A program made the position numbers and the translations under genes. DNA of 64,000 bases, taken from the NCBI GenBank assembly GCA_017506865.1, contig JAFCMP010000136.1, positions 62,001 through 126,000 on the forward strand, read 5' to 3'. The notes under the pieces were generated by a model. It was not told the DNA's origin. It made no database searches and saw nothing but the letters and a program-made list of their open reading frames with translations. This stretch comes from Tribonema minus (taxonomy: Eukaryota; Sar; Xanthophyceae; Tribonematales; Tribonemataceae). Position 1 is the stretch's first letter. Every line of letters starts with the position of its first letter. Shown here piece by piece: positions 852 to 64,000 of the stretch.

Positions 852-3800
852 ATGCTGCGACGATTGCTTGTACTGGTACTGGCGATAGGATGCCGGTGCG
901 CTGGCGGAGAGGCGAAGGGAGGCTGCTCCTGGGAGTCTATTGAGAGCGCAGCACTGGCCCTGCTTCAGGCTAACTATGACGAAGAACTGCATTCAACAGT
1001 GCCATCCAGCGATGTCGGACGATTCGTCTCCAGCACCGACTCTCTCATGGTGGCATGGTGGGTGCGACATGATGGCCGGCTGCATGACGTGATTTGAGCG
1101 CGCAAGTACCTGGCACACAGTTATGTACAATACCTATGATGCGTAGCAATGGATGCTGATTGTATTCGCTTTCGTAATCAGAGGGACCAAATTGCAACAA
1201 AGCCGCTGCAGCAGCATCGACCGCACCTTCATCATGTACCACTTGATGTTGAGTCCATTCAGTGCGGCTGTCATGCAGCATGTATCGCTGCCTGCCAAAC
1301 GACTTGGGGACGCCTGACAGAGCATTAGCTCAAGCCGGCGACACCTGCGCACTTCTTGCTCAACCATACAGGAGCGTGACCCTTGCTGTTACCGCCGGTT
1401 TCCCAGCACCCCCCTCCCCCCTTGCTCCCCCCCCAAATGCCCCTCGCAAAACCTGCCAGGGCACTCGCTCACAGCGACCAGGCGCGCGCGCAGGCGGAGG
1501 TCGTCGCAGTGCTCAACTCGCAGTGGGACAGCGGCTTCATACCCTCGGCGCGCTTTCCGGCGGAGAGCGCCAACAGCAGCGGCAGCGGCAATAATGATTG
1601 GGTGGAGGGCACGGCGCTACCGGGGCCGCGGTTCTGGCGCGGGTGCGTGGGGCGCAACGGCGACAACACCACCGCGCTCGCGGCGCTGCCGCTGCACGCG
1701 CACGTCGCGCTGCAGGTGAGTACTGAGGGGGGGGGTGGCAGACATGTATCGACTTGCCAGAGGTGATTGAGCACATGTCGTGCGCTGTCGTGAGGTTGCA
1801 CGCGCACGCCGCGCTGCAGGTGAGCACTGGGGGGGGTGGCAGACATGCGTCTACTGGCCGGCGGTGATTGAGCGCATGTTCTTGCGCTGGCGGGAGGCGC
1901 CCGCGCGCGCAACTGTCACGTGCATTGAGGTTCGGGCGAAGAGCAATGAGTAATCACAGCGCTAGCCAGAGGGCTAGTGCTGCAGCTGTGGAGTGCATTC
2001 GAAGTAGCGACGGCACAGACTACCGTGGACAAGCCGCCTGGACACCACAGGCGCCGCCTTGGCAACGTGTTGTCTGCTCTCAGGTCGCAGCACCACCAGG
2101 TGCGGGGACCACGTGCGACCGTGTCAGGCACTGTTGGCAATGAAGGCATGAGCTCGTTGACTTTCGTACATGCTCCGCAGCTGCGTGCACTACTGCGCAC
2201 CCGCTTTGTGACAAATCATGCTGGCCACTTTGCGATGGTGTGCGCGGTAGCGGTACCTTCGTACTCTTTGCCGGGACCAGTACGCACACCTAAGGCCTCT
2301 AACTGGCACACCCAATGCAGCACTGAAGCACCCCTCGCCACCGTCGCCAGACCAGGTGCAGCTAGCTGCCATCGCACCTGCGGCGCTTGCGTTCCCCTTC
2401 TAAGCTCGCGCGCGTTCTAGCTGCGCACTTCAACTTGATGCCACAGTGCTCACCAGTGCTCTAACCTCAACCGCAACCCTAACTCCTGCTCTGGCACTTG
2501 AACTTGATGCCACAGCGCTCATCCAACTCTAACCCCTGTTCTGGCACTTGATCCTGATACCACAGTGCTCATCCAGTGCTCGCCCCCCTTACATGCCAAT
2601 GCGCTCAGTCAGTCAACCCCCCCCGAGCTCACTCTCACAACACTCTGAGGCGCGCGCAGGTCTACGCGCTCTCCGACCGCGGCGCGGACGCACGGCTGTG
2701 GCTGCAGCAGATCTTCCCCGCGCTGTACCGCTGGCACGCGCACCTGCACGCGGTGCGCGCCGCGCGCAGCGTCATCGCTAGCCGCGGCGCCACGAGCGGC
2801 GGCGGCAGCAGTGGCGGCGGCAGCAGCGGCGGCGGCGGCAGCAGCGGCCGCGGCAGCAGCGGCGGCGGCGGCAGCAGCGGCCGCGGCAGCAGCGGCGGCG
2901 GCGGCAGCAGCGGCGGCAGCAGCGGCGGAGGCGGCAGCGGCGGTGGCAGCGTCGGCTCGGCGGTGGTGGTGCTGCACCCCTGGGAGACGGCGCTGCCGCT
3001 GGATGCGGAGGCGTGGCGCGGGGCAGCGCTCAACGGCGCCATCGACGCTGCCGCCAACGCGTCGTACACGCCGCCGCCCATCCCTGCGAGTGTGTTGGGC
3101 CTGGCGGAGTACCCCGGGGATCAGGTACGTGGGCATAGGTACATGTATGCAAGTACAAGTCGAGGGCCTTTGTGGAGATGTGTACAAGCGCAGTTCGTTG
3201 ACTCGCTGACCTGCATTGTACTGGTCAGCGCACTAGCGGGAAAAGGGCGAGTCGGTACGGGGAGATGCGTGCAGGCGTACGCATTGCTGGTCTGCGTAGG
3301 AAAGTACCGGTAGAAGGCACTTGCGGTACAGCGCGAGCCATTGAGTGTGTCAGATGACGTGAGGGCTCAATTGATTCTGCACCTCGGTCAAGACCCCCTC
3401 TATAATTCAATACAGCGAGCTCACTGTTCTCTTTGATGCATGTAGCTATTGCACGAGGAGCGTCGTCGCTGATGAAGGCGGCGGACACGGCTATGCTTCT
3501 CACGCGTGTGCATGCTCACCGCGCGCGCAGCTTCTGCGGCGATGTTGCAGCCGATTGATGCGCATGATGTGCTTGTGCATACGCAGCGCGCCTTGCCATG
3601 GCGCTGTTCCACATGCGGACGCGTTCAACGTTCAGCTCGGAACGACATGTGTGTGGAACTGATGTCCAACCCAAGCGCGCTGCACCTTCCGAGCCGCGCA
3701 GAACGACCTGCGTAAACTCATGCCGTGACTTGAACGCACACCAATACGTCCCCTTGCTGCCGCACCACGCAGGTGTACTCCACTGAACTCTTCCTGGCCG

Positions 3801-6800
3801 GCTTCCTGGGGGCATGGGGGGAACTGCCCGGCCCCCCAGGCCCCCCGCCCGCCACGCCAGCGGCCCCCTTTGGCGTCGTTGATGTTCAGTTTAACGCGGT
3901 GCTGATGCTATCAGACCGCGCGCTGCTGGCCCTGGCGGAGATCCTGGATGCGACGCGGCGCAGCTGGTGAGTCACCACTTGCAGTGTATTAGGAACTGGG
4001 GAGTGGAGCCACCACTTGCGCTGTGGCAGGAACTGGGGAGTCACCACTTGCAGAGTGGCAGGGAGCTAGTGAGTCACCGCTTGCGCTGTAGCAGGAGCTG
4101 GCGAGTCACCGCTCGCAGTGCAGCAGGAGCTGGTCAACACTCTGTAGCAGGCGCTGGTGATTCTCCTCGTGCAGTGTAGTAAGAGCTGATGAGCGTTGTG
4201 GCAGGAGCTGGGTAGTCACCACTTGCGCTGTGGTTGTCCCCTGGGATTCCCCCTTGGACCCCCCTATGCCCGGCGTGTGTCTCCAGCACTTGACGACAAA
4301 GCGTGCATCGCATCGCTGCGCGAGCTCCTGGCAGGCGATCCCCGCAACAGTACCAACGTGAGCAGGTCTTTGCCCCGCCTTCACCGAGCGTGTTTGTGTG
4401 TGAGCTGCGGCACATCGTTTCATTCACTTGCCCTGCAGCACCCGTAGTTGTGCGCGGCGCTACAGTAGCTACCCTGCCGCGTCGCTCAGCAGTATGCAAC
4501 TGTCCGTCAACCGTCAGGCGCATGTAGCTCGCCGTCTAGTGATCTCAAAGTTCAGCATGCGAAGTTGGAAACGTGTAGCACATTCAGCGCAGCGCAGCTC
4601 GTGCAGCACTGCTCAATTGTTGTCATGATCACACATATTACTTGATGTGAAGTAGCTGTGCATTATTCTGTTTCAACACACATACAAATGGGCGTCCCGG
4701 CGCCCGTACACCCGCAGCACATGTAGCCGCGGCCGTCACTCATTGTCACTTGCTGTCACTGCAATACTATGCAGCAGCTCTCACGTGTTGTGGTGTGTAC
4801 GGCTCAGCCCGCCTTGCACGTAAAAAAGCCTTGCACGTAAAACGCCTCGATTTGTTGCTACTCCTTGCAGGCACACACAAGAGTCTGGCAGCACTTGCAG
4901 CCGTGCGCTGCGCTGCTGCCACCGCCGCCATCAATGCCCCCCCCCCCCCCTTTCATCGGTGTCTCCACTCACGCCATAACGATGCACTCAACCACCCCCC
5001 CGTTTACTGTGCGCAGGCAAACGCGCGTCTTCACGGCGGACGACCTGCAGCACATGCAGCGCTGGGCCGCGCCCGGCGCCGCATCAGCAGCGCTCGATGC
5101 CCTCTGGTCCAACGGCACCGGCGCCGTCGCAGATACAGGAGGCCTGCTGAGCCGCTACCTGCCGCCGCAGGGCCCCCTGCCGGCAGGGGGCGTTGACTTC
5201 AACTTGAACTTGGGGGGCCCCCGCGCAGGCGCTTCCGCGCACGCGCAGCCCCAGCTGGGCACCCGAGGGGGCTCTCAAGGGGATGTGCAGACAGAGCCGA
5301 GTCTCGAGCGCGTGCAAGGGCAGCACGATCCCACTAGCCCTAACCCTAGCCCGAACTCTAGCCCTCGTTACGACGCGCTGCCGCCCGTGCTGCCGGCGGC
5401 GTCCGGCGCGTTCGCGGCGCTGCTGGCGGCGGACCTGCCGGCGGCGCGCGCCGCGGCGCTGGCGCGCCTGCTGCTCGGCGGCGGCGCGGCGGGCGTCGCG
5501 GGGCGCGCCTTCCGCTGCGGCGGCGGCCTGCAATACCCGCTGCCGCAGGAGGCGTGCACGCCAGCGGCAGCAGCAGCAGCGCTCGGCAGCAGCAGCCTCA
5601 GGGTGGCGCTGCTCGACGCGGTGCTCGCGCAGCGCGGCGCGGCGGCGCGCGGGTACCCCGGCGTGTCGGGTTGGCTCGTCAACGCGACCACAGAGCTGTT
5701 TTGTCCGCGCGCGGGGGGGCAGGAGGGGCAGGGGGGGGGATATGCGTTCGCGCGCGCTTACCGGGTGGACACGGGCGCGCCGGCGGACGGGGAGTACGGG
5801 GTGAGCTCGAGCCTGGCGGCGGCGGCGGCGATCGTGCTGATGCGCGAGGACGGAGCGCAGGGTCCCAGCGAGTACCCGCCCATCAGCCACGCCGTCATGT
5901 TCGGGCTCATGGTGAGAGTGGATGCGCTTGCGCAGCGCGCGGCCACTACATGTACATATATAGGCACGGTGACGGGGAATGAGGGGGGAGTGAGAGAATT
6001 AGATGGTGGTTTTCGGTAGCACTGATTGTCGAGCAGAGAGTTGCGTTGCAGCACTGGTGCAGCGGTCGCAGTAGGCGCGCTTGTAGGCAGTGGCTGCGGC
6101 GAGGGGAGCGGCGCTTGGGGACCCCTTGACCACTAAGACGCGATAGACATTTGCGAGCCGCTCAGGCTGATATTGAGCTGTGAGCATTGTGAGGGCACAG
6201 CATCGCATCTTCTGTTGCATGGCACGAGTGGAACACGTCAAAGGCGCGTTGCTTCTTGCAGGTCAGCGAAGCAGCGTTTGCCTTTGCGGCAATGTGCCTC
6301 CTACCTGAGCTTTTCCCTTCTACCACTCTTACATGCACGCCTCCAGACTTCACGCACCAACTTCAACTTGAACTCCCCCCGCCGCGCCCCCGCCTTTCGT
6401 GGCCGCCCCGCAGGTCAGCGAGCTGGTCTTCGCCTTCGCGGTGGGCGTCTCGTGCCTCGTCCTCTCCCTGCAGCTCGTGCGCAAGCTGCACGAGGGCGAG
6501 GCCACGGCGCTGCAGCAGCGCCCCTACGCGCCGCCCACCGCCACCCCCAAGCGCGGCCGCTACGCGCCCATGCGCCCCGCTCACGGCGGCAGCCCACGTG
6601 CGCAAAGCGCCTCTGCTGCCGCCGCCGCCGCCGATGTGCGCGCGTCAAACGCGCAGCAGCAGAGCGCGTTTGCAGCGGCGGGCGGCGCGCCCGCGGCGGC
6701 GGCGGACGGCCTCCGCGAGCGGCAGGGGGAGCGGGGGGGGGGCGGCGGCGGCGGCGCGGCGGCGCACGTGCGCGCGGCGCAGGATTTGGAGGGCAGGGGG

Positions 6801-9049: not shown

Positions 9050-9782
9050 TCAGCAGCGCTGCCGCTTCGCGCTGCCGCCGCCGCCGCTGCCGCCGCCGCC
9101 GCCGCTGCGCTCCTCCAGGCGCCTCGCCACGATGCGGCTGTCGGACATGTTGCACAGCTGCGCCAGCTCGTCGGGGCCCATCTGCGAGAACGAGTCGTCG
9201 CCGCCGCCGCCGCTGTCTCCGTCGTGCGCCGGCGCGCCCGCAGTGTCCTGAAACGCCGCAGGCTCGCCGGCCGTCGCGGCGCGGCCGCTGCCGTCGGCAG
9301 CAGGCGCGCACATCGCCGCCGCCGACACTATCAGCAGCTGGCGCTGCTGCTGCTGCTGCGGCAGCGGCGGCGGCGCTGCGGAACCCTGTGCCGCTGCTGC
9401 GGAGCCGCATAGCGCGGCGGGAGCGCCCGAGGGTGGCGTGCACATGGGCTCCATGGAGGCAGGGGCTGCCAGTGCGGCCGCGCCGCCGAACAGAGCGGGC
9501 GGCGGCGCGTTGTACGGGCTTGCATTGCCAGCTGCGCCTTGCATGCCGAGCTGCGCGTATGGGGCGTTGGCGAGGGGCGCAGAGTTGGTGCGCGACGCGC
9601 CTTGCTGCTGCAACGGCGCCGGCGGCTTGGAGCCTGAGTTGGTGCATTGCGCGCCCTGCTGCTGCTGCTGCTGTTGCTGACACTGTGCAGCGGTTCTCGG
9701 CACCTGGAACTGCCGCGGCTGCTGGGCTCCCAGTGGATGCCCCTGCTGCTGCTGCTGCTGCGGCTGTAATCGCATTTGTTGC

Positions 9783-9818
<36 letters not shown>

Positions 9819-10251: not shown

Positions 10252-10282
<31 letters not shown>

Positions 10283-42274: not shown

Positions 42275-43146
42275 TAAGATTGATGCAAGCGAACTAAATG
42301 CAATTGTCGATTCTGTCAAAGCAGCTGCATGCGCTCTTGCGGTGCACACATTCTCAAATACGCACGAAGTCTCTCTTGGTGGATCTGAGACGGCAAGGCT
42401 CAGTTCCAAGCCCCCGCACCACGACAAGGTGGAGACCGCATTCGCGGGGGAACTGCCTACACAAGCGATGCAGCACGCCAAGCAACAACAAGCCTGCGGA
42501 ACATCAAATCCCAGCACAATCTGCACGCTTTGCGTCAGCCTCCCTGATTGCGACGCGGGCAGATTGATAGGAGATGAGATGTACGCAGCCTTACTGGTGT
42601 TTGACGCACTGCGACCAGGCAGTACGACCAGACAAGAGCATGCTGCTGAACACAGGCACGGCCTAGGAAGACAGAGGGCGGCAGTCCCCCTCTCTTCCAG
42701 AGGAGGGCACCCATCGGTGGCTGGGTAACCTCCCGCGGATCTTAGACCCTCTCATTGCTGCTTAGAGTGCCGGCCGTGGCTAGACAGGCCCGTCGCCTCG
42801 AGTAAATCATGTCAGCACGAACATACCACGCCAGCCCTGCTGCGCTGCCGCAACAGCAGGGCCTCCCAGGCAGCCAACAAGTGGGTGACTTGATGCAGCC
42901 TGGGTATCCTGTGTTCTAGCAGCAGCTCTTGTGTGGCCTTTACCTGTTGTTTCGTGGTGCCGCCAGGTCGTGTGCCCAGGCCAAAAACCGCTGCGCCCGT
43001 TCAAGTGGAAAATGCGTGACAGTGTGGTACCTCCAGGCACGCGCCCGCCACAGACCAAGCGCGCCTACGCCACCAGGCACGGCCTGAGCACAGCAGCAAG
43101 TGACTGCGCTTGCCCCAAAGGAAAGCAGCAATGCTTTCGTTGCGAT
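42275..43146. other. Unassigned region upstream of truncated LINE copy
   Basis: A 160-codon plus frame at 42249-42728 and a frame from 42931 that runs into the LINE copy (with a short cysteine cluster, CACPKGKQQCFRC, before the junction) have no recognised family. The second may be a host or other-element exon interrupted by the LINE. Confidence 0.3.
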
Positions 43147-45249
43147 CAGTATGTGGCGGGCACGTTGCAAGCGCTGCAACCAGCACTCTCTGGATGGGCG
43201 GGGGTGCTGCAGCAGGCGGCTCCTCAAGCGGCTGCAGACAACGCTGCTGAGGATGCGGCAACACAAGCGGCACCGGCAGCAGCGGCAGCAGCACCAGCAT
43301 CAGCAGCATCAGCAGCGGCAACTGTTACAGCGGCAGCGGCGGTTGCCAGTGGAGGCGCGACCGCTCCGGCAGCGGCAACTGCATCAGCGGCTGGCCGCGC
43401 TTATGGCGCAGCCATTCCGGCAACACACGACGCAGCTGCCGCTGGATCAGGGGCCGCGGCGGCAGCACAGGCGGCACCAGCGGCAGCAGCAGCAGCGGCG
43501 GCGCACGGCGCAACTACTCCGGCGGCAGCAGCAGCGGCGGCAGCAGCAGCTGCTCCAGCATCAGAGGCTGCTGCAGCAGCGGCAGCACATGTTGCACCTC
43601 AAGTGGCCTCGGCGGCATCACTAACTGCAGCATCAACAGCAGCGGCTGCGGGCATAGGCAGCACAGCTGCTACAGGCCCTACTAGCCTAAGGGCTGCTGC
43701 AGCACCTGAAACAGGAGCAGCGTCGGCAGGCGGCGCCGCAAACGTGCCGGCTGCGACAGCGGCAATGGCGGTGGCAGCGGCCAATGCGGCAGGTGCTGCA
43801 CCAACACCTGCGGCAGCAGCAACACCACTGGCAGCAGCAGCAACGGCAGGCGGCACAGCTGCAGCACCAGCGCACGCAGCAGCGGCAGCCGTCAATGCAG
43901 GCGCTGCACGTTCCACACCAGCAATGCTACAAGGCGCAGCAGCAGCAGAGGTGGCGCGCCTGCCCCTCATGCGGACGATCGCCACAGCTGCCACATCTCT
44001 ACGTGCAGCAACAGGTGACAAGCTGGAACATATACTGCCACCAGCGCTAACGCCACTGCAGCAGCAACCACCTACGCAGCAGCCGCCGCTGCGGCCGACA
44101 GCAGGTGGTGGCACTGGTGCAGATGCTGCTTGCGTACTTGACGCCAGTGCTCTGCAGTTGCAGTGTAGCCTGAAGCCCCCCAATCAGAGTGCGCTTGCAG
44201 ATGCCGTCGCTACCGAGCTTGCAGATAAGGTGGAGGCGGACCTGCAACAGCTGCCGCAGGGCACGCAACGCACGCAAGCACTTGCTCGATTCCGGTCGCA
44301 GCGCCACATGCACTCGATCGGCATGGCATTCCTCAACGAGCCCATGTACTCCACAACGGCTTCGTTCGATGGCCTATCCTGGCAGCTGGCCGTCAAACGC
44401 GCCATCGGAGTAGAGGAGCAGACGGCAGGCTGCAAGCTGTGCGGGAAGTCGCCGGGCGGCACCCTGCATGCACGGCTGTGTCAAGCGCCACGCGTCAAGG
44501 CGCACGACACCATTGTCCACAATAGCGTCAAGAGGGCCACGCAGCGCCTCCTGCGGCAATACCTCAAAACGGGACTGGTGGACGAGGACTACACGCCGTT
44601 TCTGGGGTCCGCCGGGCCGCCGGGGAGTCGCAGGATGGACATCGTGCTGCCTGCCGACGCCTTCCCGGTGACCGGCTACGACGACCCGACACGCCACCTA
44701 CCGCTCATGGTGGACGTTACCTGCTTCGAGGCACAGGTGGCGTCGCGGGCGGCGAAGACTGCAGCAGACCCCGAGCGATGCTGCCGCGACCAAGAGGCCG
44801 CCAAGACTACCCACTATTCTGGTCATTATGATCAGAATTGCTACAAACTTGCCACTTTGGCAATACGGTCATTTGGCAGCATCGGGGAGCAGGGGCGGAA
44901 GCTGCTGGAGGCTGTGGCGACGGGGTATGCCAGCAGGATGTCAGTGCCCGGAGGAGCGCGCCCTAAAGCTCTCAAGGGCATCGCCCTGGCGCGCTTACGC
45001 TCGGCACTGTCGGCAGCGCTCCACATGGCGTACTCTGGCCGTGTCATGACACACATGGCAGAATCCAGGGGGGGGGGGCACATGGAGGAGGACGTAGGGG
45101 AGGACCCCGAGATGCCATTTGGCGGCGGCGGCGTTTGAGTGGTTGTCGTTGCGACACTTTTTTTAGACTGTCATACGACATGTAGATTCCTTACAGCTAG
45201 ATGCCAATCATCTGGGCTTTTTCGCGCCCTGAGCGAGAATTAATAAGAA
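43147..45249 (+). mobile_element. 5'-truncated LINE copy (Ala-rich linker, nuclease domain, 3' UTR)
   Basis: Almost base-for-base identical to 53410-55509 of the full-length element, with scattered substitutions over 2.1 kb, starting at TATGTGGCGGGCACGTTGCA. The reverse transcriptase is missing. The remaining frame is open to the stop at 45138 and keeps the alanine-rich linker, the CKLCG...HARLC zinc knuckle and the nuclease motifs. The 3' tail ends AATTAATAAGAA followed by GTACAT. No target-site duplication is evident at the 5' junction, so the 5' end may have been rearranged. High identity implies a recent insertion from this or a sister element. Confidence 0.9.
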
Positions 45250-49767: not shown

Positions 49768-50000
49768 TGTATGAATGCACTGCGATGTGTCCCATGCCCC
49801 GATGTCAGTTGTTTGCCTTGCTGCTCTGCTGTTCTCTGTTTGTGCAACATTAGGTTTGTGCAAGTGCCTTAATCTCAGTTTGGCGTGCTGGTGCATCATT
49901 GCGTAGACTACTAGACACCACTGCAGTTTTCGACAATTATGACTGGCGCAGTGTTCCTGCCCTACTAATGTCACATCATTCAATCATGTACAACAGAACT
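49768..50000. other. Spacer ending in the LINE target-site duplication (49988-50000)
   Basis: The last 13 bases, GTACAACAGAACT, recur immediately after the LINE at 55510-55522. No gene is seen. Confidence 0.9.
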
Positions 50001-53000
50001 GACAAGTACTTGCGGATAGGTATGTAGCTGTAGCATGTAGCACCATGGCGTAGCAGAGATCATGAAAAGAATATCATGGCGGCGGCGGGAGGCCCGTATT
50101 GCCAACTCTGAATCAGCGCAGAAATGCAAGGAATCCGATCTAGCGTGCGCACAAGCGCAGGATATTAGCACCAGTGCTGCAGATGGCAATGGCGCTTGTC
50201 AACAGGACGATGGCACGAGTGGCAGCAGCAGAGCAACTGGAGACGGACGCGCAGCGCACAAACGCAAGAGGGTACAGAATGACGGTTGGTCAATTTCCGA
50301 TCAAACAGGCGAAGGGGAGCACACGGGCGGGCAAAGTGCAGTCAAGCGCTCTAGAACAGGTCATAACAGTCTGGAACAGCAACCTCTGATGCTAGACGAC
50401 GAAGCTGGAGGTGGAGGCAGTGCGGACCCGGAGTACAAGTGCAACTTATGCGACCTCGTGGTGAAGAAGGGCATGTCGCTGCTCTCGTTACAGCAGAGGT
50501 TAAACGCCCACATCGCGGCGAAGCACCAGCGCAAACACCACAGTGGGACAGCAACAACGTTCCTGGAGCGCTCCGACCTCAGCACGTCGCACTTGCAAAC
50601 CATCTACACCGAGTGTGCCTTGTGCAAAAACCTGTTTCATGCCAACAAGACATTCAGAGTGGACAGCAGCGATGCCAGCGCGGGCAAGCACTGCCGCAAA
50701 TGCAGGCCTATCACTTCACCCGCTGCAGTGGCGGCAACATTGTCAACAACAGCATCAGCAGCACCGCTAGCACCTGATGCATCGACGGCAACAGCTACCA
50801 CGTCGCTGCCACAGCAGCAACCGGCGTGCACACCCATCGGCAACCCCTACGCAAAGGGACCAGCGCACGCGCAGCAGGCACCTGCTGCTCAGGCTGGTGG
50901 CAGCAGCTCCTCCGGCAGCTCGAAGAGGCCGGAACGTGGGGGCAGCAGTGCTACACGAGGGGGTCGGGGTCGCAGTGGAGGGCGCGGACGTGGCAATGGA
51001 GGACGCGTTCGCAGCGGCAGCAATGATGCAGACATCAGCAGTAGCAGAGCGACTAGCGGCAGCAGAACCGGAGGCGGCAGCAGCAGCGGTGCCGGCGGCG
51101 GCAGTGCAGCCGGTACTAAGGACAGCGGCGCTGGCAACGGCCGCAGCAGTGATGCCAGCAGCCGCAGCGGCGGTGCTAGCAACAGCGGCAGTGGCGCGCG
51201 AACTCAAAACGGCCGCGGTGGCCGTGGCAGCGGTCGCAGCAGCGACAGCGGCGGACGAGGCTGTGGTCGTGGCGGCCGCGGCGGCGGCGGAGGGGGCCCC
51301 AGAGCGGCAGGTGCGGCGACAGCAGCGGCAGCGCCAGGCCCTGCAGGCGCAGCAGGTGGGGCAGGTGGGCTTTTCACGTGGACCATCTCAACCCCCGCAG
51401 TCGCAGCAGTGCTTGACAGCATCAGCCTCGATGAGCTGTGCAAGCTGCAGTTCGCGACAACTAGAAGCCTTGCTAGACCACGCAATCGTCGCTATGTGGG
51501 AGCTGCACTGGAGAACGCAGCAACACATCTGTTGGCACACACAATGACGATGTTCGTCAATGCGGCGCGGGAGCCAGATTCCGCAGGGCGGGTGCAGCGA
51601 CTGCAAAGATCCACGATTCTACACCACCTCATGCCATCACTCATCACCTCCACCGATGGCGCACCTGGCATCACTCGCTCCGACAGAATCAGAATGTTGG
51701 CACGCGGTGAGCTTGACCGGTTGGTGCCAGCGCTCCTCGCACACGCGCGTGCGCACCGGCGCTGGCGCGCGCGCCAGCAAACGGAGGCAGCGATCAACGC
51801 CTACGTCCTACAGTGCATGGGCACACGGGGGGGGCTACAGCAGGCAGCGCGTTTCCTTCAGCCCAAAACGGTGGCGATACCTGATGATGACTGCTTTGCC
51901 GCCATGCAGTCCAAACACCCCCCCGCTGCGCCAGGGGAACAACTCCATGAGCTATCCGGCATGGTTGATCAGCTTGTGGCGAAAGCAGCCGACATGCCAG
52001 CAGAACTCAGCCTGTTACAGGGGGAGGGAATTGAGCCAGAGACGGTTGCCAAGCTCATCCAGCGAGCAAGCCCTTACAGTGGAGCAGGCCCATCGGGGCT
52101 GCGCTACAGCCACCTGCAGGATGCGCTACGCACAAGCTGGGGACGGCATGAGTTTGCTGCTGTCCTCACACGGTGGCTTCAGACCGTTATGCGGGAGGCT
52201 GCGCGGCTGCCGGATGCCTTCTGGCAGTTGCATGGCGCGGGGCGCCTGACGCCACTTGCAGAACAACAGGAAGATGGTACAGCTAAGCAGCGGCCCATCG
52301 TTTGCGGCGAGGTGCTGCAGCGACTATGCACTTCGGTGTACGTGGCAGACCGCAAAGACTTCCTGGCGGAGCTCCTTGAGCCAGACGGGCAGTATGGGGT
52401 AGCCGTCTCAGCAGGAGCGGAGAAAGCGGCCATGGCCGGCAAACTCGCGTATGAGCTCGGTCACTGGCAGTTCATGCTGGACCTCAAGAATGCCTTCAAC
52501 ATGGTGTTCGTCCTGGCGGCAGCGGAATGGGTAGCAGCACAGCTGCCGGACTTCCTCGACTACTTCATCGGCACATACGTTCGCACTCGGCCACGCCTGC
52601 TGTTCCAGCACGTTGACGGCTCCACGCGCATCATCATGTCTCAGCGCGGGTTTAAGCAGGGGGACCCCGCGGCACCGATGCTCTTCTGCGGCGCCATTGC
52701 TCAGTGCTTGAAACGGTTCAATGAGGCGGCGGCTGCGCAGCGCGCGCGGAGGCGGATGGGCGCCTACATGGACGATGCCAACGTCCGAACAGGCGCTTGC
52801 ACGCTGACTCAGGATGACATACAGGCGGTGGCGCAGCTCAAACAACACTTTGCGGAGGTGGGGCTGGAGCTAAACCTCACCAAGTCACGCGCGCTGCCTG
52901 GCAGGGGGCATGTGGTGACAGACCACGAGCGGCAACTGCTGCAGCAGCTGGGCGTTCAGCTAGTGGGGGATACGGATGAAAATCAGAACCGTGGAGCTGT

Positions 53001-55509
53001 GTTGCTGGGGGTGCCGGTGGGCCACAGCAGCTTTGTGGACGCATGGCTGCGCAGGGAAGCGGGTGCAGGCGGGGCAGGGGCTCGATTTGCAGAGCGATGC
53101 GCGCGCCTGACATCTCCGAGGGCTATGTTCAGGTTACTGCGCTACTGCGTGGTGCCTCGCATGACGTACTGCCTGCGCACCATTCCCACTACGCAGACAG
53201 CGCCAGCCGCCAAGGAGTGGGATCGGGTCACGCAGTGGGTGCTTGAGCACTCAATGGGCCTGCAGCCACCAGGCCAGACCTGGCGCCAGTTTGAGCAAAG
53301 TGGGGCCCACTTCCATCTGGCAGCGCACGGCCCAGCCTTACAGCAAGCGCGACTCCCAACACGGCATGGCGGCCTTGGCATTACCAGCGCCTGCGACATC
53401 GCTGATGCTGCGTATGTGGCGGGCACGTTGCAAGCGCTGCAACCAGCACTCTCTGGATGGGCGGGGGTGCTGCAGCAGGCGGCTCCTCAAGCGGCTGCAG
53501 ACAACGCTGCTGAGGATGCGGCAACACAAGCGGCACCGGCAGCAGCGGCAGCAGCACCAGCACCAGCAGCATCAGCAGCGGCAACTGTTACAGCGGCAGC
53601 GGCGGTTGCCAGTGGAGGCGCGACCGCCCCGGCAGCGGCAACTGCATCAGCGGCTGGCCGCGCTTATGGCGCAGCCATTCCGGCAACACACGACGCAGCT
53701 GCCGCTGGATCAGGGGCCGCGGCGGCAGCACAGGCGGCACCAGCGGCAGCAGCAGCAGCGGCGGCGCACGGCGCAACTACTCCGGCGGCAGCAGCAGCGG
53801 CGGCAGCAGCAGCTGCTCCAGCATCAGAGGCTGCTGCAGCAGCGGCAGCACATGTTGCACCTCAAGTGGCCTCGGCGGCATCACTAACTGCAGCATCAAC
53901 AGCAGCGGCTGCGGGCATAGGCAATACAGCTGCTACAGGCCCTACTAGCCTAAGGGCTGCTGCAGCACCTGCAACAGGAGCAGCGTCGGCAGGCGGCGCC
54001 GCAACCGTGCCGGCTGCGACAGCGGCAATGGCGGTGGCAGCGGCCAATGCGGCAGGTGCTGCACCAACACCTGCGGCAGCAGCAACACCACTGGCAGCAG
54101 CAGCAACGGCAGGCGGCACAGCTGCAGCACCAGCGCACGCAGCAGCGGCAGCCGTCAATTCAGGCGCTGCGCGTTCCACACCAGCAATGCTACAAGGCGC
54201 AGCAGCAGCAGAGGTGGCGCGCCTGCCCCTCATGCAGACGATCGCCACAGCTGCCACATCTCTACGTGCAGCAACAGGTGACAAGCTGGAACATATACTG
54301 CCACCAGCGCTAACGCCACTGCAGCAGCAACCACCTACGCAGCAGCCGCCGCTGCGGCCGACAGCAGGTGGTGGCACTGGTGCGGATGCTGCTTGCGTAC
54401 TTGACGCCAGTGCTCTGCAGTTGCAGTGTAGCCTGAAGCGCCCCAATCAGAGTGCGCTTGCAGATGCCGTCGCTACCGAGCTTGCAGATAAGGTGGAGGC
54501 GGACCTGCAACAGCTGCCGCAGGGCACGCAACGCACGCAAGCACTTGCTCGATTCCGGTCGCAGCGCCACATGCACTCGATCGGCATGGCATTCCTCAAC
54601 GAGCCCATGTACTCCACAACGGCTTCGTTCGATGGCCTATCCTGGCAGCTGGCCGTCAAACGCGCCATCGGAGTAGAGGAGCAGACGGCAGGCTGCAAGC
54701 TGTGCGGGAAGTCGCCGGGCGGCACCCTGCATGCACGGCTGTGTCAAGCGCCACGCGTCAAGGCGCACGACACCATTGTCCACAATAGCGTCAAGAGGGC
54801 CACGCAGCGCCTCCTGCGGCAATACCTCAAAACGGGACTGGTGGACGAGGACTACACGCCGTTTCTGGGGTCCGCCGGGCCGCCGGGGAGTCGCAGGATG
54901 GACATCGTGCTGCCTGCCGACGCCTTCCCGGTGACCGGCTACGACGACCCGACACGCCACCTACCGCTCATGGTGGACGTTACCTGCTTCGAGGCACAGG
55001 TGGCGTCGCGGGCGGCGAAGACTGCAGCAGACCCCGAGCGATGCTGCCGCGACCAAGAGGCCGCCAAAACTACCCACTATTCTGGTCATTATGATCAGAA
55101 TTGCTACAAACTTGCCACATTGGCAATAGGGTCATTTGGCAGCATCGGGGAGCAGGGGCGGAAGCTGCTGGAGGCTGTGGCGACGGAGTATGCCAGCAGG
55201 ATGTCAGTGCCCGGAGGAGCGCGCCCTAAAGCTCTCAAGGGCATCGCCCTGGCGCGCTTACGCTCGGCACTGTCGGCAGCGCTCCACATGGCGTACTCTG
55301 GCCGTGTCATGACACACATGGCAGAATCCAGGGGGGGGGGGCACATGGAGGAGGACGTAGGGGAGGACCCCGAGATGCCATTTGGCGGCGGCGGCGTTTG
55401 AGTGGTTGTCGTTGCGACACTTTCAGACTGTCATACGACATGTAGATTCCTTACAGCTAGATGCCAATCATCTGGGCTTTTTCGCGCCCTGAGCGAGAAT
55501 TAATAAAAA
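50001..55509 (+). mobile_element. Full-length non-LTR retrotransposon (RLE-type, Utopia-like)
   Basis: A 5.5-kb element bounded by perfect 13-bp target-site duplications, with a 61-bp 5' leader, one 1779-codon ORF, and a short 3' UTR of about 108 bp ending in a hairpin (TTTTTCGCGCCCTGAGCGAG) and AATTAATAAAAA. No AP-type endonuclease is present; a C-terminal restriction-like nuclease is inferred. The uninterrupted ORF and intact duplications suggest a young, possibly active copy. It is inserted 220 bp downstream of the membrane-protein gene. Confidence 0.92.
50062..55401 (+). CDS. LINE polyprotein: zinc fingers, RGG region, reverse transcriptase, poly-Ala linker, restriction-like endonuclease
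   Basis: 1779 aa. Residues about 125-156: C2H2-like finger (YKCNLCDLVV ... HIAAKH). About 185-214: CX2C...CX2C (ECALCKNLFH ... CRKC). About 285-435: Gly/Arg/Ser-rich RGG-type nucleic-acid-binding region. About 670-1000: reverse transcriptase, with PYSGAGPSGLRYSHLQDAL, FMLDLKNAF (Asp 807), QRGFKQGDPAAPMLFCGAI and the catalytic GAYMDDANV (YMDD at 902-905). About 1120-1430: strongly alanine-rich linker. About 1545: CCHC-type knuckle (CKLCGKSPGGTLHARLC). Then RRMDIVLP (Asp 1614), LMVDVTCFEAQ (Asp 1639) and AAKTTHYSGHY (Lys 1669), a PD-(D/E)XK-like arrangement typical of Utopia-class C-termini. It would carry out target-primed reverse transcription. The start is the first ATG after the 5' junction. 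Confidence 0.9.
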   Translation: MKRISWRRREARIANSESAQKCKESDLACAQAQDISTSAADGNGACQQDDGTSGSSRATGDGRAAHKRKRVQNDGWSISDQTGEGEHTGGQSAVKRSRTGHNSLEQQPLMLDDEAGGGGSADPEYKCNLCDLVVKKGMSLLSLQQRLNAHIAAKHQRKHHSGTATTFLERSDLSTSHLQTIYTECALCKNLFHANKTFRVDSSDASAGKHCRKCRPITSPAAVAATLSTTASAAPLAPDASTATATTSLPQQQPACTPIGNPYAKGPAHAQQAPAAQAGGSSSSGSSKRPERGGSSATRGGRGRSGGRGRGNGGRVRSGSNDADISSSRATSGSRTGGGSSSGAGGGSAAGTKDSGAGNGRSSDASSRSGGASNSGSGARTQNGRGGRGSGRSSDSGGRGCGRGGRGGGGGGPRAAGAATAAAAPGPAGAAGGAGGLFTWTISTPAVAAVLDSISLDELCKLQFATTRSLARPRNRRYVGAALENAATHLLAHTMTMFVNAAREPDSAGRVQRLQRSTILHHLMPSLITSTDGAPGITRSDRIRMLARGELDRLVPALLAHARAHRRWRARQQTEAAINAYVLQCMGTRGGLQQAARFLQPKTVAIPDDDCFAAMQSKHPPAAPGEQLHELSGMVDQLVAKAADMPAELSLLQGEGIEPETVAKLIQRASPYSGAGPSGLRYSHLQDALRTSWGRHEFAAVLTRWLQTVMREAARLPDAFWQLHGAGRLTPLAEQQEDGTAKQRPIVCGEVLQRLCTSVYVADRKDFLAELLEPDGQYGVAVSAGAEKAAMAGKLAYELGHWQFMLDLKNAFNMVFVLAAAEWVAAQLPDFLDYFIGTYVRTRPRLLFQHVDGSTRIIMSQRGFKQGDPAAPMLFCGAIAQCLKRFNEAAAAQRARRRMGAYMDDANVRTGACTLTQDDIQAVAQLKQHFAEVGLELNLTKSRALPGRGHVVTDHERQLLQQLGVQLVGDTDENQNRGAVLLGVPVGHSSFVDAWLRREAGAGGAGARFAERCARLTSPRAMFRLLRYCVVPRMTYCLRTIPTTQTAPAAKEWDRVTQWVLEHSMGLQPPGQTWRQFEQSGAHFHLAAHGPALQQARLPTRHGGLGITSACDIADAAYVAGTLQALQPALSGWAGVLQQAAPQAAADNAAEDAATQAAPAAAAAAPAPAASAAATVTAAAAVASGGATAPAAATASAAGRAYGAAIPATHDAAAAGSGAAAAAQAAPAAAAAAAAHGATTPAAAAAAAAAAAPASEAAAAAAAHVAPQVASAASLTAASTAAAAGIGNTAATGPTSLRAAAAPATGAASAGGAATVPAATAAMAVAAANAAGAAPTPAAAATPLAAAATAGGTAAAPAHAAAAAVNSGAARSTPAMLQGAAAAEVARLPLMQTIATAATSLRAATGDKLEHILPPALTPLQQQPPTQQPPLRPTAGGGTGADAACVLDASALQLQCSLKRPNQSALADAVATELADKVEADLQQLPQGTQRTQALARFRSQRHMHSIGMAFLNEPMYSTTASFDGLSWQLAVKRAIGVEEQTAGCKLCGKSPGGTLHARLCQAPRVKAHDTIVHNSVKRATQRLLRQYLKTGLVDEDYTPFLGSAGPPGSRRMDIVLPADAFPVTGYDDPTRHLPLMVDVTCFEAQVASRAAKTAADPERCCRDQEAAKTTHYSGHYDQNCYKLATLAIGSFGSIGEQGRKLLEAVATEYASRMSVPGGARPKALKGIALARLRSALSAALHMAYSGRVMTHMAESRGGGHMEEDVGEDPEMPFGGGGV

Positions 55510-55522
55510 GTACAACAGAACT

Positions 55523-57985: not shown

Positions 57986-60900
57986 TCAGGCTAGACTCCG
58001 CATGACAAAGGAATGATGGTATGGCAACAGCGCTCCACTGGCGCGCTGAGCTTTAGCCAGGCCGTACCTGTACGCTGGAGTACTCGGGCTGTACGCCGAC
58101 GTGTTGGACGGGCTGTAAGCCGGTGACGTGGGGCTGTAAGCCGGTGACGTCGGGCTGTATGCAGGGGACGTAGGGCTGTAGGCCGGAGAGGTGGGGCTGT
58201 AAGCCGGAGATGTCGGGCTGTAAGCCGGTGACGTCGGACTATAGGCAGGCGACGTCGGGCTGTAAGCCGGGGAGGTTGGGCTGTATGCCGGCGATGTCGG
58301 GCTGTAAGCCGGAGAAGTGGGGCTGTAAGCCGGAGAGGTGGGGCTGTAGGCCGGCGACGTCGGACTGTAGGCAGGCGACGTGGGGCTGTAAGCCGGAGAG
58401 GTGGGGCTATAGGCCGGTGACGTGGGGCTGTAAGCCGGCGAAGTAGGGCTGTAAGCGGGCGACGTAGGGCTATAGGCTGGCGAGGTCGGGCTGTAAGCTG
58501 GCGATGTCGGGCTGTAAGCTGGTGATGTGGGGCTATAGGCCGGTGACGTCGGGCTGTAGGCCGGTGATGTCGGGCTGTAGGCTGGTGACGTCGGGCTGTA
58601 AGCCGGAGAGGTGGGGCTGCACGCCAAAGAAGTCATCACAAGCACATCACAGAGTCAGGACCATTAGCGCCGCTGTAGATCATAGCAACAAGCTGCTGTC
58701 TAGTATTCTGTAAAGCACGCACCATCGAGCCACAACAACTATGCAGGGTCTGTGTCATAACCCCTCGCAGGCGGCACAAAAACACGATGTGTTCAATGAA
58801 GCTGACCTCTCAGGACTTGAGGGCCTTCTGTGGCTGAAGCGGAGACAGAGGTATCTGTCTGAACAGAACAGCAATGCGAAGGTACTTGCAGTTGCACTGC
58901 AGAGCTCACAGCCACTTGCATGCTCAGACAGCATTGAACGAAGCATGCGTGAGGTCCTGTGACACGCCCACAGTTGTCGACTTTGCGCTACCGTACGCAG
59001 AGAAGACTGGTGCGTGATGCCTGCGGTAAGCCAGCATCTCTGTCCATGCGCATCACAACCTGACAGCACCACTGCTGCTGCAACAACCAGCAATGCAGCA
59101 CAGGGCATGCCCCATGATACTTGGGAGTATAAAGCTCTCAAGTATGAAAACTTCAACAAGCAGTTGTGTACCTGTACGACGGACTCGTGGGGCTGAAGCT
59201 GGGGCTGTTGGGACTGAACACGCCCATGCGCGGGCTGTTGGGACTGAATGACGCCCCCCCAATGGGGCTCTGGAAGGGGGACATGGCCGGTGAGAATGCA
59301 GCGCCACCGAAGGGGGTCATGGACCCCTGCGCTGGGCTCATGCCGGGGGACATCCAGGGGGTCATGTGGGGGGTGGCAAGGCCTGCACAGACAGCAGAGG
59401 AGTAATAAGGGGGTCGTTGATTGTGTGCTGCAAAGGGGGGTGAGTGTGGCAGTGTGTAGTGACGGATTACTGCTGAGGCATGACTCAGCCATTACTGTAC
59501 ATCTAGTTTAACTGTTGAGCGGCAAGTTTGAGTTGGAGGGAGTCAGGCGAGAGCAGCTGTCAACACACCTTATCACGGCTGTTTCTCATCAACAGTTAAA
59601 CAATTAGGCGTGCCTCTGCTCTCACCGATGTTGGCATTGTGTGAATGCTGCACTGCAGTAATTCAGCCTACTGATCTACATACCTGACAAGTCTGACTGT
59701 CGTAGCAGCTTGCCAATAGAGTGCGACAATCACCATTTCTTTGCATCAGTGCATAACTGACATCCATGCAGCAGAACCTCGCCTCGTACTGCCGCGGATA
59801 CAAGCAGATGCTGTAAAATACATCATTCGCCATGCATATAAGCTGTGCTTCGCCGCCACCAAAACCAGCCCAGGGAGCACTGCACATAGCCAGCTCTCAC
59901 ACTCAAAGGTGCATACCAAGAATGGTGACACAGGCTGCCTCATCACCTCAAGCAAGCTAGTCACACTACTGACCACATGCGCATGCGTACATACTTTGAA
60001 GTATCTCTCTACAGACGAAAGACTTGATGGTGTGTAGCTTCATCTGATGCTTCATGTAGCTTCATCTGATGCTTCATCAAATACACTACTGCCATTTAAA
60101 AGCGGAGGAATATGTACCTGCTCCCAGGGCGCTGCCGACGTTGATGCCCACTTTGCTGAGCGCTGCGTCGAGTTCCTTCGTGTTCACCGCATCCTTCAGC
60201 CGCTCTTCGTCCAGCAGCAGATCCATGCAGCCGGTGCCGACCTAATATGACATGCACAACGGTTCATGATATGGATGAATGTGTTGTCTGCATGCTACAG
60301 CATCCAACGGTGCAATGATTTGTGGAAAAGGTACATGTGCTGCTGTGGATGCTATCCTGGAAGGTACTCAGAGCGTGCGACATGCTGTAAGCTTGTAATG
60401 GGGTGTGAACGGAACATGTGCGACGTGGCAACAGAACTTCAACATATCTTCAAGTTGAAGCAAAGGACACCATGGAAGCTTTCGATGGCATGCCATGGCA
60501 CAAAGCAGGGCATGAGGCGATGATACGCAACTTGACAGCATGAGGCAACGCCAGGTTGTTGCGCCACCATCATGGGTTCTCCGCCACTTGAATCAAACGC
60601 GAGGTGTTAGCCGCACGGCCTTGCAGCCCGCTCTAAAAGAATGAGTGTTGACAACGGCTGGCATTCAACAGTGCGCCAATGCAGAGACGGTGACCATCCA
60701 TAAGCCAACATGATGCCGTCACTGTCACGCCGTTGAAATTCTGGGTCTCCAATGACAGCGCCGCCATCGCAATGACGACATACACAGAAGGCGCCAGTGC
60801 AGAACCCATCAACCCGGGCGCTGCGACAGACCACACAAAGGCATCACACGCTAGGAGCGCATGTACGCTCCACAGCAACAGTCGTTGTGACTGACAGTTG

Positions 60901-63900
60901 AGCACCGTGGCAACAGCGCTGACGCGCACGGTTCACACCACACCGAGGAGGAAGGCATGCGCAGACGCCACACCTGCGCGCGCTGCCCCAGCATGATGTT
61001 GCCCTTGAGTTTATCGCTCTCGGCAAACATATAGATGCACCACAGCAGTCGCTAGGGCAACCAAGTACACGCTTTCCATACCAACCTGTTCTGAGTAGAA
61101 CACTCCACAAGATATAGTAAAGTAACATCCCGGTTTGGGCCATCAACCCGCGCGCTGCGGCAGACTGCACAGAGGCAAACAAACGCGTGCGCAGAGCGGA
61201 CGCCGCACCTGCGCGAGCTGCCCCAGCATAATGCTGTCGGTTACGCCCTTGAGGTCATTGCTCTCCGCAAACATATAGATGCACCACAGCAGTCGCTAGG
61301 GCAACCAAGTACACACTTTCCATGCCAACCGTTTCCGAGTAGAACACTCTACATGATATAGTAAAGTAACATTCCGGTTTGGGCCATCAACCCGCGCGCT
61401 GCGGCAGACTGCACAGAGGCAAACAAACGCGTGCGCAGAGCGGACGCCGCACCTGCGCGAGCTGCCCCAGCATAATGCTGTCGGTTACGCCCTTGAGGTC
61501 ATTGCTCTCCGCAAACATATAGATGCACCACAGCAGTCGCTAGGGCAACCAAGTACACACTTTCCATGCCAACCGTTTTCGAGTAGAACACTCTACATGA
61601 TATAGTAAAGTAACATCCCGATTCGGGCCCATCAACCCGCGCGCAGCGACAATCTGCACGAAGGCAAAACTGCGTGCGCAGAGCAGACGCCGCACCTGCG
61701 CGAGCTGCCCCAGCATGATGTTGTCGGTTACGCCCTTGAGGTTGTCGCTTTCGGCAAACATGGCGGCCTCCATGAGGATCTCCACCGTCTCCTCAAAGGA
61801 CGAGCGCAGCATGGGGCCGTTGTCGACGCGGTTGATGCCGTGCCGCGTGATGGCCATGAGGTAGCCCTGTTGCGTGGCAGCGAAGCGGAGTCACGTGGGG
61901 GGAGATCAGCTGCGGATACGACAGTTTGATAGAGTGCGCATGTGGCAGTGCGCAGCGGCAGTGTTGACTACATGCATACCGTATTATGTTCAACACGCGG
62001 CGCACGTAGAGTGGCCATGAGGTAGCCCGGTTGGGTGCAAGCGCAGCGGTTGCAGCGCGCATGCGGAATTGCATGAGGGGAGATCAGCTGCGGACACGAC
62101 AGTTCATTGATTCCGAAGTAATTTCACCATGGTAGATGATTGAAGTTCCATGACCGTCAGGAGTCTCATCTCAATGCAGTAGAGTGTGCATGTGGCAGTG
62201 CACAGTGGCTGCGTCTGCGTACGTGCCGTATGCACACCATGCGGCACACACTCAGCTGCATAACTAGTGCGGCAGCAGAGTGACGAGCTGCAATGCTCAG
62301 TGCGCATGTGGCAGCACGCTCCATGTAGTCAGCATCAACACCTGAAATGATCTGCCCACCCCCACTTCCAAAATTGCTGTGAGTGGTCGTCATGACGTCT
62401 GTGAGCGTCTCAACATAGTAGTTCCTGATGCACATACATCACCACATTCAAACCCCAAGAGCTTCCTCTTCGCGCTTCGCCAGAGCAGCGCGCAGCAGCG
62501 TGCGCGCTCCAAACAAACCCGCTATGTAGACGATACTCACCCTGAAGGTCATGACGTCGACGAGCGTCCCCAGGTGGCTGTAGTCTCAAGGTAGAAGTAG
62601 CTCATATACACATCATCGCAATGGAGCGCCTAGGAACTCAACCTGAACGTTTGCCATGACGCGCGCTTGAAACAAACGAATTCACTGGGTAGACGACACT
62701 CACCCTGAACGTCATGGCGTCCACCAGCGTCCCCAGATGGCGGTAGTCTCAAGGTAGTGGTAGCTCATATACACATCTTCGCAATGGAGCGCCTACATGC
62801 AGTACCTCGCATTTCAAACAAAAACCCACTAGACTATGTAGACGACACTCACCCTGGAGGTCATGACATCGACCAGCGTCCCGAGGTGCCTGTAGTTGAC
62901 GTACGAGCCGTCGCGCTCCACCACCGCGCGGAACTCTATTTCGCACTTCAAACAAACCCGCTATGTAGATGACACTCACCCTGAAGGTCATGACGTCGAC
63001 CAGCGTCCCCAGGTGGCGGTAGTTGACGTACGAGCCGTCGCGCTCCACGACCGCGCGGAACTCGCGCAGCAGCGACATGCGCGCGCCCTCGATGCCAAAC
63101 ACCGACAGGCACTCCACCACGTCGTTGCTGACGGTGCGCCGGTGGTCGACGTTGGGGCAGCAGAGCACCGCCATGAGGTTGGTGCCGTCCGTCTCGAGGA
63201 GCCACTCGGTCTCGCGCTGGAAGCCCTTGTCGGGGTCGAAGACGGGCCGCGTGCCCTCCTGCATGTACACCTGAGGGAGGAGGTGAGAGGGGTAGGGGGG
63301 GGGGGGCGGGGGCATTCAGCAATACTTCAATGCGACATCGCAGGTAGGACAATGGGCAGGGCGCAAGTCGCCGTGTCCGTGAAGGTTGAAGAGCATGCAG
63401 GCAGCCAATTACAATGTTGCAGGGGCAATCCAGAGGGGGAGGGGGGGGGGGGGGGGGGGTAGGGCACTCAGCAAAATTTCAATGTGGCATTGTAGCAGGC
63501 TGGCTCAGGTCAATATGTCAGTGAATGTTGAAGATTCTGTCACAACGAAGACAGGCAGCTTTCACGAATATGCAGCGGCGACCCAGAGGAGGGGACGGTG
63601 GGGGAGGGGGAGAGGCATGCAGCAAAACTTCAATGCGGCGTTGTAGGTCAATCGATGGGCGGGCGCAAGTCGCGCACGTCAGTGGCAGTTACAAATCATG
63701 AGGAGGGACATTATCGTGTCGCATTAAAGACCTGTAGGCCTTGACAATTATGCAGGAGCAACCCAGGCGTCCAAATGGCGCTACAGTACCACGTGCGAAG
63801 TACTGACTTACCTCGTTGCTGCTGTTACGTGCGCACAACTGACCTAGTCATGCTCACGTGCACACTGCTGACCGTGTGAACGCTGTCACATTTGAACTGC

Positions 63901-64000
63901 TGGCCTTGTTTTAAACATCGTCACGTGCGAACTACTGACTGACCTTGTTGATTATGTCACGTTTGAACCACTGACTTGCCTTGTTGATGTTGTCGATGCC
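57986..64000 (-). CDS. RPB1: RNA polymerase II largest subunit, C-terminal part (partial, 5' end beyond the window)
   Basis: Exons, all in phase: 64000-63980, 63270-62980, 61866-61696, 60241-60118, 59382-59172, 58616-57986 (482 aa seen). RPB1 is the catalytic core subunit of Pol II. Diagnostic blocks: GIDNINK, then [109 protein letters not shown]. After a degenerate linker of SPNSP/SPTSPS units, the CTD has 24 perfect YSPTSPA heptads, then [15 protein letters not shown] and a basic 28-residue tip ([13 protein letters not shown]...). Ser2 and Ser5 are kept in every repeat, while position 7 is always Ala. The first intron in view starts with GC (AAG|GCAAGT). Three introns carry tandem copies of the preceding exon end. 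Confidence 0.96.
58118..58616 (-). repeat. Coding 21-bp minisatellite of the RPB1 CTD
   Basis: Twenty-four consecutive heptad codon blocks encode YSPTSPA; the first is split by the intron. Synonymous differences are frequent, so the protein is more uniform than the DNA. Confidence 0.95.
60974..61768 (-). repeat. RPB1 exon end plus donor duplicated in the intron (about 244-bp unit, three partial copies)
   Basis: The real exon ends at 61696 (CTCGCGCAG|GTGCGGC). Copies of its last 66 bases with the donor end at 61453, 61209 and 60974, spaced 243, 244 and 235 bp. The first two still translate [20 protein letters not shown]; the third has lost 9 nt. Each copy is joined to the same intron sequence (GTACTTGGTTGCCCTAGCGA on the minus strand) and has no proper acceptor. 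Confidence 0.9.
62541..62980 (-). repeat. RPB1 exon end plus donor duplicated in the next intron (three partial copies)
   Basis: The real exon ends at 62980 (ACCTTCAGG|GTGAGTGTC). Copies with the same donor end at 62853, 62704 and 62541. The first keeps about 85 bases of exon ([20 protein letters not shown]); the others keep about 42. Spacings are 127, 149 and 163 bp. Confidence 0.88.
63288..63660. repeat. About 150-bp tandem repeat with G-runs in RPB1 intron
   Basis: Three units, each with a long G-rich run (C-rich on the sense strand, next to the exon acceptor), then GCA-TCAGCAA-A-TTCAATG-G at about 63315, 63466 and 63617. The first unit includes the polypyrimidine tract of the exon starting at 63270. 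Confidence 0.75.
63788..64000 (-). repeat. Minisatellite on the GC-type donor of an RPB1 exon (six units of about 34 bp)
   Basis: The real junction is CAACAAG|GCAAGTCAGTGG at 63980/63979. Five degenerate copies follow in the intron, including CAACAAG|GTCAGTCAGTAG (63942) and AACGAG|GTAAGTCAGTAC (63815). The other units keep a G|GTCAG or similar core. Confidence 0.75.

What the first reader, a model, noticed from the sequence alone, without database searches (positions are those of the whole stretch)
1694..64000. Recurrent tandem duplication of exon-intron junctions in two unrelated genes
In at least five introns on both strands (after the exons ending at 1715, 3966, 61696, 62980 and 63980), the end of the exon plus its 5' splice site has been copied downstream into the intron, from one extra copy to about nine. 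Two further cases copy the acceptor plus exon start (6252-6310; 62012-62028). KIN17, RAD52, BTB and sulfatase introns do not show it. Unit lengths (33, 34, 104, about 150, 244 bp) differ, so this is not one satellite; what is shared is the location across a splice junction. The result is a series of decoy or alternative donors after a real exon. It might be a by-product of a replication or repair process that starts at exon-intron boundaries, a route of intron growth, or a regulatory design. I know of intron gain by tandem duplication, but not of this repeated pattern as a described system.
Basis: seen in the sequence. Interest (0 to 1): 0.88.

Follow-up and report, generated by a model that had tools for sequence, protein, structure and literature searches.

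The report
Splice junctions copied into neighbouring introns
In this photosynthetic eukaryote's genome, the ends of exons together with their splice signals are often found copied into the neighbouring intron, and the copies look like slowly decaying leftovers of local tandem duplication rather than a designed control system.

Summary
All seven cases in the finding were recovered. In eight conserved genes with curated exons, 34 of 51 introns carry copies of their own donor or acceptor junction (43 of 102 junctions, 94 copies), against 0 of 872 probe searches in introns of other genes. In 19 sampled stretches from five contigs, 11 of 93 junctions have a copy, against 0 of 169 cross-locus controls. 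No inverted local pair was found beside 339 direct ones (ten loci). Joining RPB1 exons at the outermost junctions gives a protein colinear with solved RPB1. Decoy splice dinucleotides decay at about the neutral rate, and codon-position divergence mostly fits neutral copies; two weak signals disagree. Families with at most two pairs span junctions as often as geometry predicts (13 of 55; simulation about 28%). Families with three or more pairs do so in 22 of 29 cases, against 5 to 16 expected, which I cannot fully explain. Several genes show none. Best reading: frequent local tandem duplication, tolerated at intron edges, which lengthens introns. A junction-prone amplification step remains possible.

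The parts
1475..1715 (+). exon of an unnamed gene (gene1); donor at 1716
   Evidence: gene model, AG/GT ends; no Pfam match for three ORFs of this gene
1782..1862 (+). copy of exon end plus donor of exon 1475-1715, unit about 101-104 bp
2474..2586 (+). intron-only tandem duplication, period 50, in the same gene (comparison case)
3962..4233 (+). array of 32-37 bp units starting at the exon end 3966 and its donor
   Evidence: exon share short (about 5 bases strongly matched)
6258..6318 (+). diverged copy of acceptor plus start of exon 6414
   Evidence: score 37.5 versus shuffle maximum 36
60947..61518 (-). three intronic copies of the donor junction of RPB1 exon 61696-61866, unit 244 bp
61696..61866 (-). 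RPB1 exon ([10 protein letters not shown]...GQLAQ)
62012..62049 (-). copy of the acceptor and start of RPB1 exon 61696-61866
62503..62936 (-). three intronic copies of the donor junction of RPB1 exon 62980-63270
62980..63270 (-). RPB1 exon, RNA_pol_Rpb1_5
63287..63673 (-). intron-only repeat of about 151 bp in RPB1 (comparison case)
63805..63958 (-). two copies of the junction of the RPB1 exon ending at 63980 (GC donor)

Best explanation
Short direct duplications (family offset median about 127 bp) arise often in and near introns. When a duplicated unit happens to cross a splice junction, the outermost junction can still be used, so the event is tolerated and the copy becomes intron. Repeated events, templated by the exon or by earlier copies, build arrays of decaying pseudo-junctions and lengthen the intron. 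Shown: the copies, the absence of inverted pairs, their presence in many genes, a colinear RPB1 protein when outer junctions are joined, near-neutral decay, and a rise of copy number with intron length. Inferred: that the cell uses the outer junctions (no RNA was seen) and that the events are ordinary tandem duplications by replication slippage or unequal exchange. Not explained: why multi-copy families include junctions more than geometry predicts.
For: Junction copies at 27 of 51 donors and 16 of 51 acceptors, 0 of 872 searches in other genes' introns (the earlier control gave 0.375 and 0.125 expected). 11 of 93 junctions in the sampled stretches, 0 of 169 controls. No inverted pairs beside 339 direct in 91.4 kb, ten loci; the inverted scan found 10 of 10 planted repeats. 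RPB1 exons joined at outer junctions align colinearly to residues 847-1464 of solved RPB1. Original-copy divergence 0.095, 0.085, 0.169 at codon positions 1, 2, 3 and 0.165 in the intron part (0.096, 0.086, 0.171, 0.165), the pattern of a constrained exon and a neutral copy. Donor dinucleotide unchanged 52 of 65, AG 30 of 38. Families with at most two pairs 13 of 55 spanning, as simulated. Copy-copy distances are 0.79 (0.68-0.88) of the sum of exon-copy distances over 20 families; a random-template model gives 0.77 and exon-only templating 1.0.
Against: Families with three or more pairs span junctions in 22 of 29 cases, above all my nulls. Junction probes have copies more often than probes 240 bp into the flank (40 of 113 against 10 of 101; 11 of 93 against 2 of 77), although in the curated genes probes at +80 and +160 (28 of 111, 28 of 107) are not far below, and deeper probes have less flank left to search. 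In-frame stops in copies are rarer than expected (3 against 10.1), and copy-private changes are fewer at codon positions 1-2 (ratio 0.61, 0.39-0.87); misordered copies could cause the latter.
Confidence: 0.62

Rival explanations
1. A mutational process is aimed at exon-intron boundaries (for example replication or repair trouble at the base-composition step, R-loops or positioned nucleosomes there), so amplification starts preferentially at junctions.
For: Families with three or more pairs span junctions in 22 of 29 cases, those with six or more in 12 of 13; simulated null 29-30%, binomial P 2.7e-7 for 22 of 29. The nearest copy is on average less diverged than the farthest (0.102 against 0.156, 28 families), 55 concordant against 28 discordant pairs.
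Against: Families with at most two pairs show no excess (13 of 55). Detection resting on intron sequence alone gave 11 of 70 spanning, expected 7.7 to 21.4 (its criterion misses families split by indels). If ancestral introns were short the expectation for arrays rises to 16.2 of 29 (P 0.003). Polarity per family is not significant (17 of 25, P 0.11), and a random-template model fits the copy distances.
Confidence: 0.22
2. The copies are functional decoy, alternative or recursive splice sites that tune splicing.
For: Many copies keep a donor next to an exon end, the AG|GT layout of recursive sites as I recall it; stops in copies are fewer than expected.
Against: Donor and acceptor dinucleotides in copies decay at about the neutral rate. 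Copy number and unit differ between introns, and several conserved genes lack copies.
Confidence: 0.07
3. Some copies are real tandem or alternative exons under coding selection, as suggested by the four near-identical translated copies after the Cpn60 exon 5530-5829 of L036.
For: Translated copies there stay intact; across families, changes private to the nearest copy lean synonymous (29 of 59 against 13.8 expected; conservative ratio 0.61).
Against: A donor-side copy carries the donor but no copied acceptor, and the reverse (inferred from the anatomy, not tested copy by copy). RPB1 is colinear with solved RPB1 without the copies. Changes in the exon lineage between copying events mimic a synonymous excess.
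Confidence: 0.07
4. Assembly artefact (stuttered long reads or collapsed haplotypes).
For: No raw reads could be examined.
Against: Copies differ from the original by 13% on average in the exon part and 21% in the intron part, with different units, and occur in many contigs.
Confidence: 0.02

Closest known systems
[quoted passage not shown] potato RdRp case, PMC4974935, abstract and passages seen)
   Same: A tandem duplication crosses an intron-exon boundary and copies splice signals; [quoted passage not shown]
   Different: Here the copies lie inside existing introns and no new intron was seen in RPB1; events recur several times per intron and across many genes.
Internal gene duplication (Gao and Lynch 2009; not held; known only as cited in PMC4974935 and PMC3443670 and from recall)
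   Same: Frequent duplication within genes as a source of splice-site change.
   Different: Here the duplicated pieces are junction fragments that decay in the intron rather than whole exons or new introns.
Intronic minisatellites (recalled)
   Same: Direct tandem units of tens to a few hundred bases.
   Different: Units are gene-specific, and 22 of 29 families with three or more pairs include a splice junction.
Introner elements (PMC9860276, search listing only)
   Same: Both change intron content in bulk.
   Different: No dispersed family: the RPB1 region finds itself and seven short matches of 75-100% identity elsewhere.

Membership tests
[quoted passage not shown]
[quoted passage not shown]
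   In RPB1 the copies sit inside existing introns; joining outer junctions gives the colinear protein. Other genes were not tested for this, and no RNA was available.
Minisatellite array | Head-to-tail direct repeats | tested here: met
   no inverted pair beside 339 direct. Not all copies are contiguous.
Minisatellite array | Copy-number polymorphism | not testable with these tools
   No second RPB1 copy in the assembly; no population data
Introner elements | Near-identical copies dispersed through the genome | tested here: not met
   for the RPB1 region only
Tandem or mutually exclusive exons | Copies bounded by both splice sites and under coding selection | tested here: inconclusive
   Weak synonymous lean; both-site structure not tested copy by copy
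Recursive or decoy splice sites | Splice sites conserved above neutral | tested here: not met
   Donor dinucleotide unchanged 52 of 65, AG 30 of 38, against about 48-51 and 29 expected from exon-part divergence

The most novel reading that the evidence does not exclude
Exon-intron boundaries in this lineage are hot spots for stepwise tandem amplification: junction-spanning units are re-duplicated again and again while older copies are pushed deeper into the intron, so introns grow from their edges and carry a dated record of past exon sequence.
Probability: 0.2. Interest if true: 0.8.

Novelty: new variant of a known kind. Interest (0 to 1): 0.55.

Why it matters
How introns lengthen is usually told through transposons and deletion bias (recalled). 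Here 34 of 51 introns in conserved genes carry fossils of their own splice junctions, and copy number rises with intron length. Because one copy is held fixed by coding selection, each array can serve as a clock for intron growth and as a test of how the spliceosome picks the right site among near-perfect decoys.

Tried and rejected
The first gene-finder run drifted to tiny exons and was replaced by a stricter one. Coverage per base does not peak sharply at the junction; I judged it uninformative about founding events because arrays fill introns. Exon-masked detection gave 11 of 70 spanning, no excess; its criterion misses families split by indels, so I report it as a result against junction bias but do not rest on it. 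Repeated copying only from the exon was dropped as unneeded: distances fit a random-template model. Polarity in my simulation did not separate the models. Duplicated Pfam segments within a gene, judged by eye from the listings: in PF00118 three genes show them (C51, C5, C135); PF00270, PF00504, PF00012 and PF00562 show no clear case and PF00227 one doubtful case (C434). This test is weak because the exon part of a copy has a median of 47 nt. G+C at third positions does not explain which genes have copies (L030 0.70 with many, L032 0.945 with few). Light-harvesting paralogs were fetched to compare arrays and have no local duplications. Two exon ends used were off by 1 and 4 bases (L036 exon at 3123; RPB1 exon ending 63980, GC donor); one search repeats the copy counts, dinucleotide counts and codon-position counts with them mended, and those numbers are given; the family tests were not rerun. 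Rows dropped: exons under 60 nt or with low coding score, retroelement and CTD stretches, junctions lacking GT/AG or with short flanks; one family whose exon had no open frame (gene1 acceptor). L030 and L033 were left out of the curated tests because the gene finder called no exons there (L030 has 77 local pairs, L033 none).

Full report
The window is part of a 158-Mb, 554-contig assembly. Matches to the chlorophyll a/b-binding family (92) in an intron-bearing genome mark a photosynthetic eukaryote; the label green alga is my inference. The minus-strand gene from about 58 kb onward is RPB1: exons joined at the junctions used here align to residues 847-1464 of solved RPB1 chains (best E 8e-174). 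The plus-strand gene at 1.5-6.9 kb gave no Pfam match for the three ORFs tested.

Tandem Repeats Finder and self-BLAST recover the donor-side arrays, and self-BLAST also the acceptor copy at 62012. An ungapped scan agrees, and the copy at 6258 needed a directed alignment. In 264 kb the scan found 898 local direct pairs against 6 in one Markov-resampled null. The exon ending at 63980 has a GC donor, as the sequence and the protein alignment suggest.

To see how general it is I built an ab initio gene finder and read 19 stretches of 10 kb at round positions in five large contigs, the 10 kb upstream of RPB1, and eight of ten chaperonin genes located by Pfam. With curated exons in eight genes (RPB1, gene1 and six chaperonin loci; 51 introns), probes of 40 exon and 24 intron bases find a copy in the adjoining intron at 27 of 51 donors and 16 of 51 acceptors, in 34 of 51 introns, 94 copies in all; the same probes in introns of the other genes gave 0 of 872. 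Probes of 60 and 60 bases find 37 of 51 introns and 103 copies with 9 of 872 in the control; asking for 10 matched bases on each side leaves 31 of 51 and 87 copies, control 7 of 872. Per gene, in the set: 8/13 RPB1, 2/4 gene1, 4/5 L029, 3/3 L032, 8/9 L034, 4/5 L035, 6/6 L036, 1/6 L031 (36 of 51). In the sampled stretches 11 of 93 junctions have a copy and 0 of 169 cross-locus controls; three of the 19 stretches had no called exon. Negative genes: window middle 0 of 29 junctions, L033 without a local pair and L031 with two, four light-harvesting loci without any.

Is the junction special? Of 84 families of local duplications in the curated genes, 35 span a junction and 49 do not. The expected number is 12 if units are as long as the matched segment and 26 if they are as long as the offset. 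A simulation with uniform tandem duplication and a constrained exon gives 27-29% spanning among detected families; families with at most two pairs match it (13 of 55), families with three or more do not (22 of 29). For the latter the expectation is 5.0 with present intron lengths, 8.4 after removing the array itself and 16.2 after removing all arrays, and 29% in a multi-copy simulation (binomial P 2.7e-7). Unit sizes are underestimated for a few arrays, which by my estimate raises the expectation slightly. A test resting on intron sequence alone shows no excess (11 of 70, expected 7.7-21.4), with the flaw noted in Tried and rejected. Probes at +80, +160 and +240 bp have copies in 28 of 111, 28 of 107 and 10 of 101 cases in the curated genes, against 40 of 113 at junctions; in the sampled stretches 8 of 87, 2 of 81 and 2 of 77 against 11 of 93. 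Deeper probes have less flank left to search. So duplication is concentrated near exon ends in these genes; a founding bias to the junction itself is unproven, but the larger families are junction-anchored.

What are the copies? Inverted local pairs were not found (0 beside 339 direct in 91.4 kb, ten loci; the scan recovers 10 of 10 planted ones), which fits slippage or unequal exchange. Offsets between nearest copies are broad: 360 of 474 lie between 20 and 199 bp. Exon-copy divergence is 0.095 and 0.085 at codon positions 1 and 2, 0.169 at position 3 and 0.165 in intron-derived sequence: the twofold step expected if the exon is constrained and the copy is not. The donor dinucleotide is unchanged in 52 of 65 donor copies and AG in 30 of 38 acceptor copies; exon-part divergence predicts about 48-51 and 29. 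Against full neutrality: 3 in-frame stops against 10.1 expected, changes private to the nearest copy lean synonymous (29 of 59 against 13.8), and in a conservative version copy-private changes are rarer at positions 1-2 (ratio 0.61, 95% 0.39-0.87, 29 families). Misordering of copies can produce the last two; the first is unexplained.

How do arrays grow? Copy-to-copy distances at codon positions 1-2 are 0.79 (0.68-0.88) of the sum of exon-to-copy distances (20 families); a model in which any copy may be the template gives 0.77, exon-only templating 1.0. Copies nearer the exon tend to be less diverged (55 against 28 pairs, 15 ties; families 17 of 25, P 0.11). Introns with copies are longer (median 823.5 of 36 against 648 of 15, P 0.028) and copy number correlates with length (0.54, P 4e-5); longer introns also offer more room, so cause is not proven.

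Literature: among the papers listed (14 of 14, 20 of 131, 3 of 3, 20 of 27, 12 of 51 and 12 of 15; one search found none) I saw no title or abstract start that describes genome-wide junction-copy arrays. The closest is a potato gene in which a tandem duplication crosses an acceptor and makes a new intron (PMC4974935, passages), and a review that lists 188 intron gains by tandem duplication (PMC3443670, passages). PMC5966456 (passages) gives intron lengths for other green algae and nothing on this pattern in the passages seen; the terms asked of PMC3629103 were not in its text. The library lacks most subscription papers.

Limits: exons rest on a homemade gene finder checked by Pfam frames for the chaperonins and by alignment to a solved protein for RPB1; no RNA, no relatives and no raw reads were available; the curated genes are conserved housekeeping genes, so 34 of 51 should not be read as a genome average.

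Noticed in passing
58109-58619: RPB1 C-terminal domain on the minus strand is about 24 tandem heptads, mostly YSPTSPA rather than the usual YSPTSPS (the usual form is recalled).
   Followed up: no
50041-55401 and 42889-45138: A 1786-residue open frame that looks to me like a retroelement polyprotein (recalled resemblance, not searched), with a second open frame sharing its C-terminal part.
   Followed up: no
   Followed up: partly
2497, 5203, 8552 (+), 18523 (-): The word CTTGAACTTG occurs 4 times against 0.2 expected, once in an exon; TTCAACTTGAA occurs in 7 of 40 fetched loci.
   Followed up: partly
L025:492-7858: Predicted exons with equal coding scores mirror each other on the two strands, which suggests a large inverted repeat (not aligned).
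   Followed up: no
63979: Likely GC-AG intron in RPB1 (AAG|GCAAGT), suggested by the sequence and the protein alignment.
   Followed up: partly
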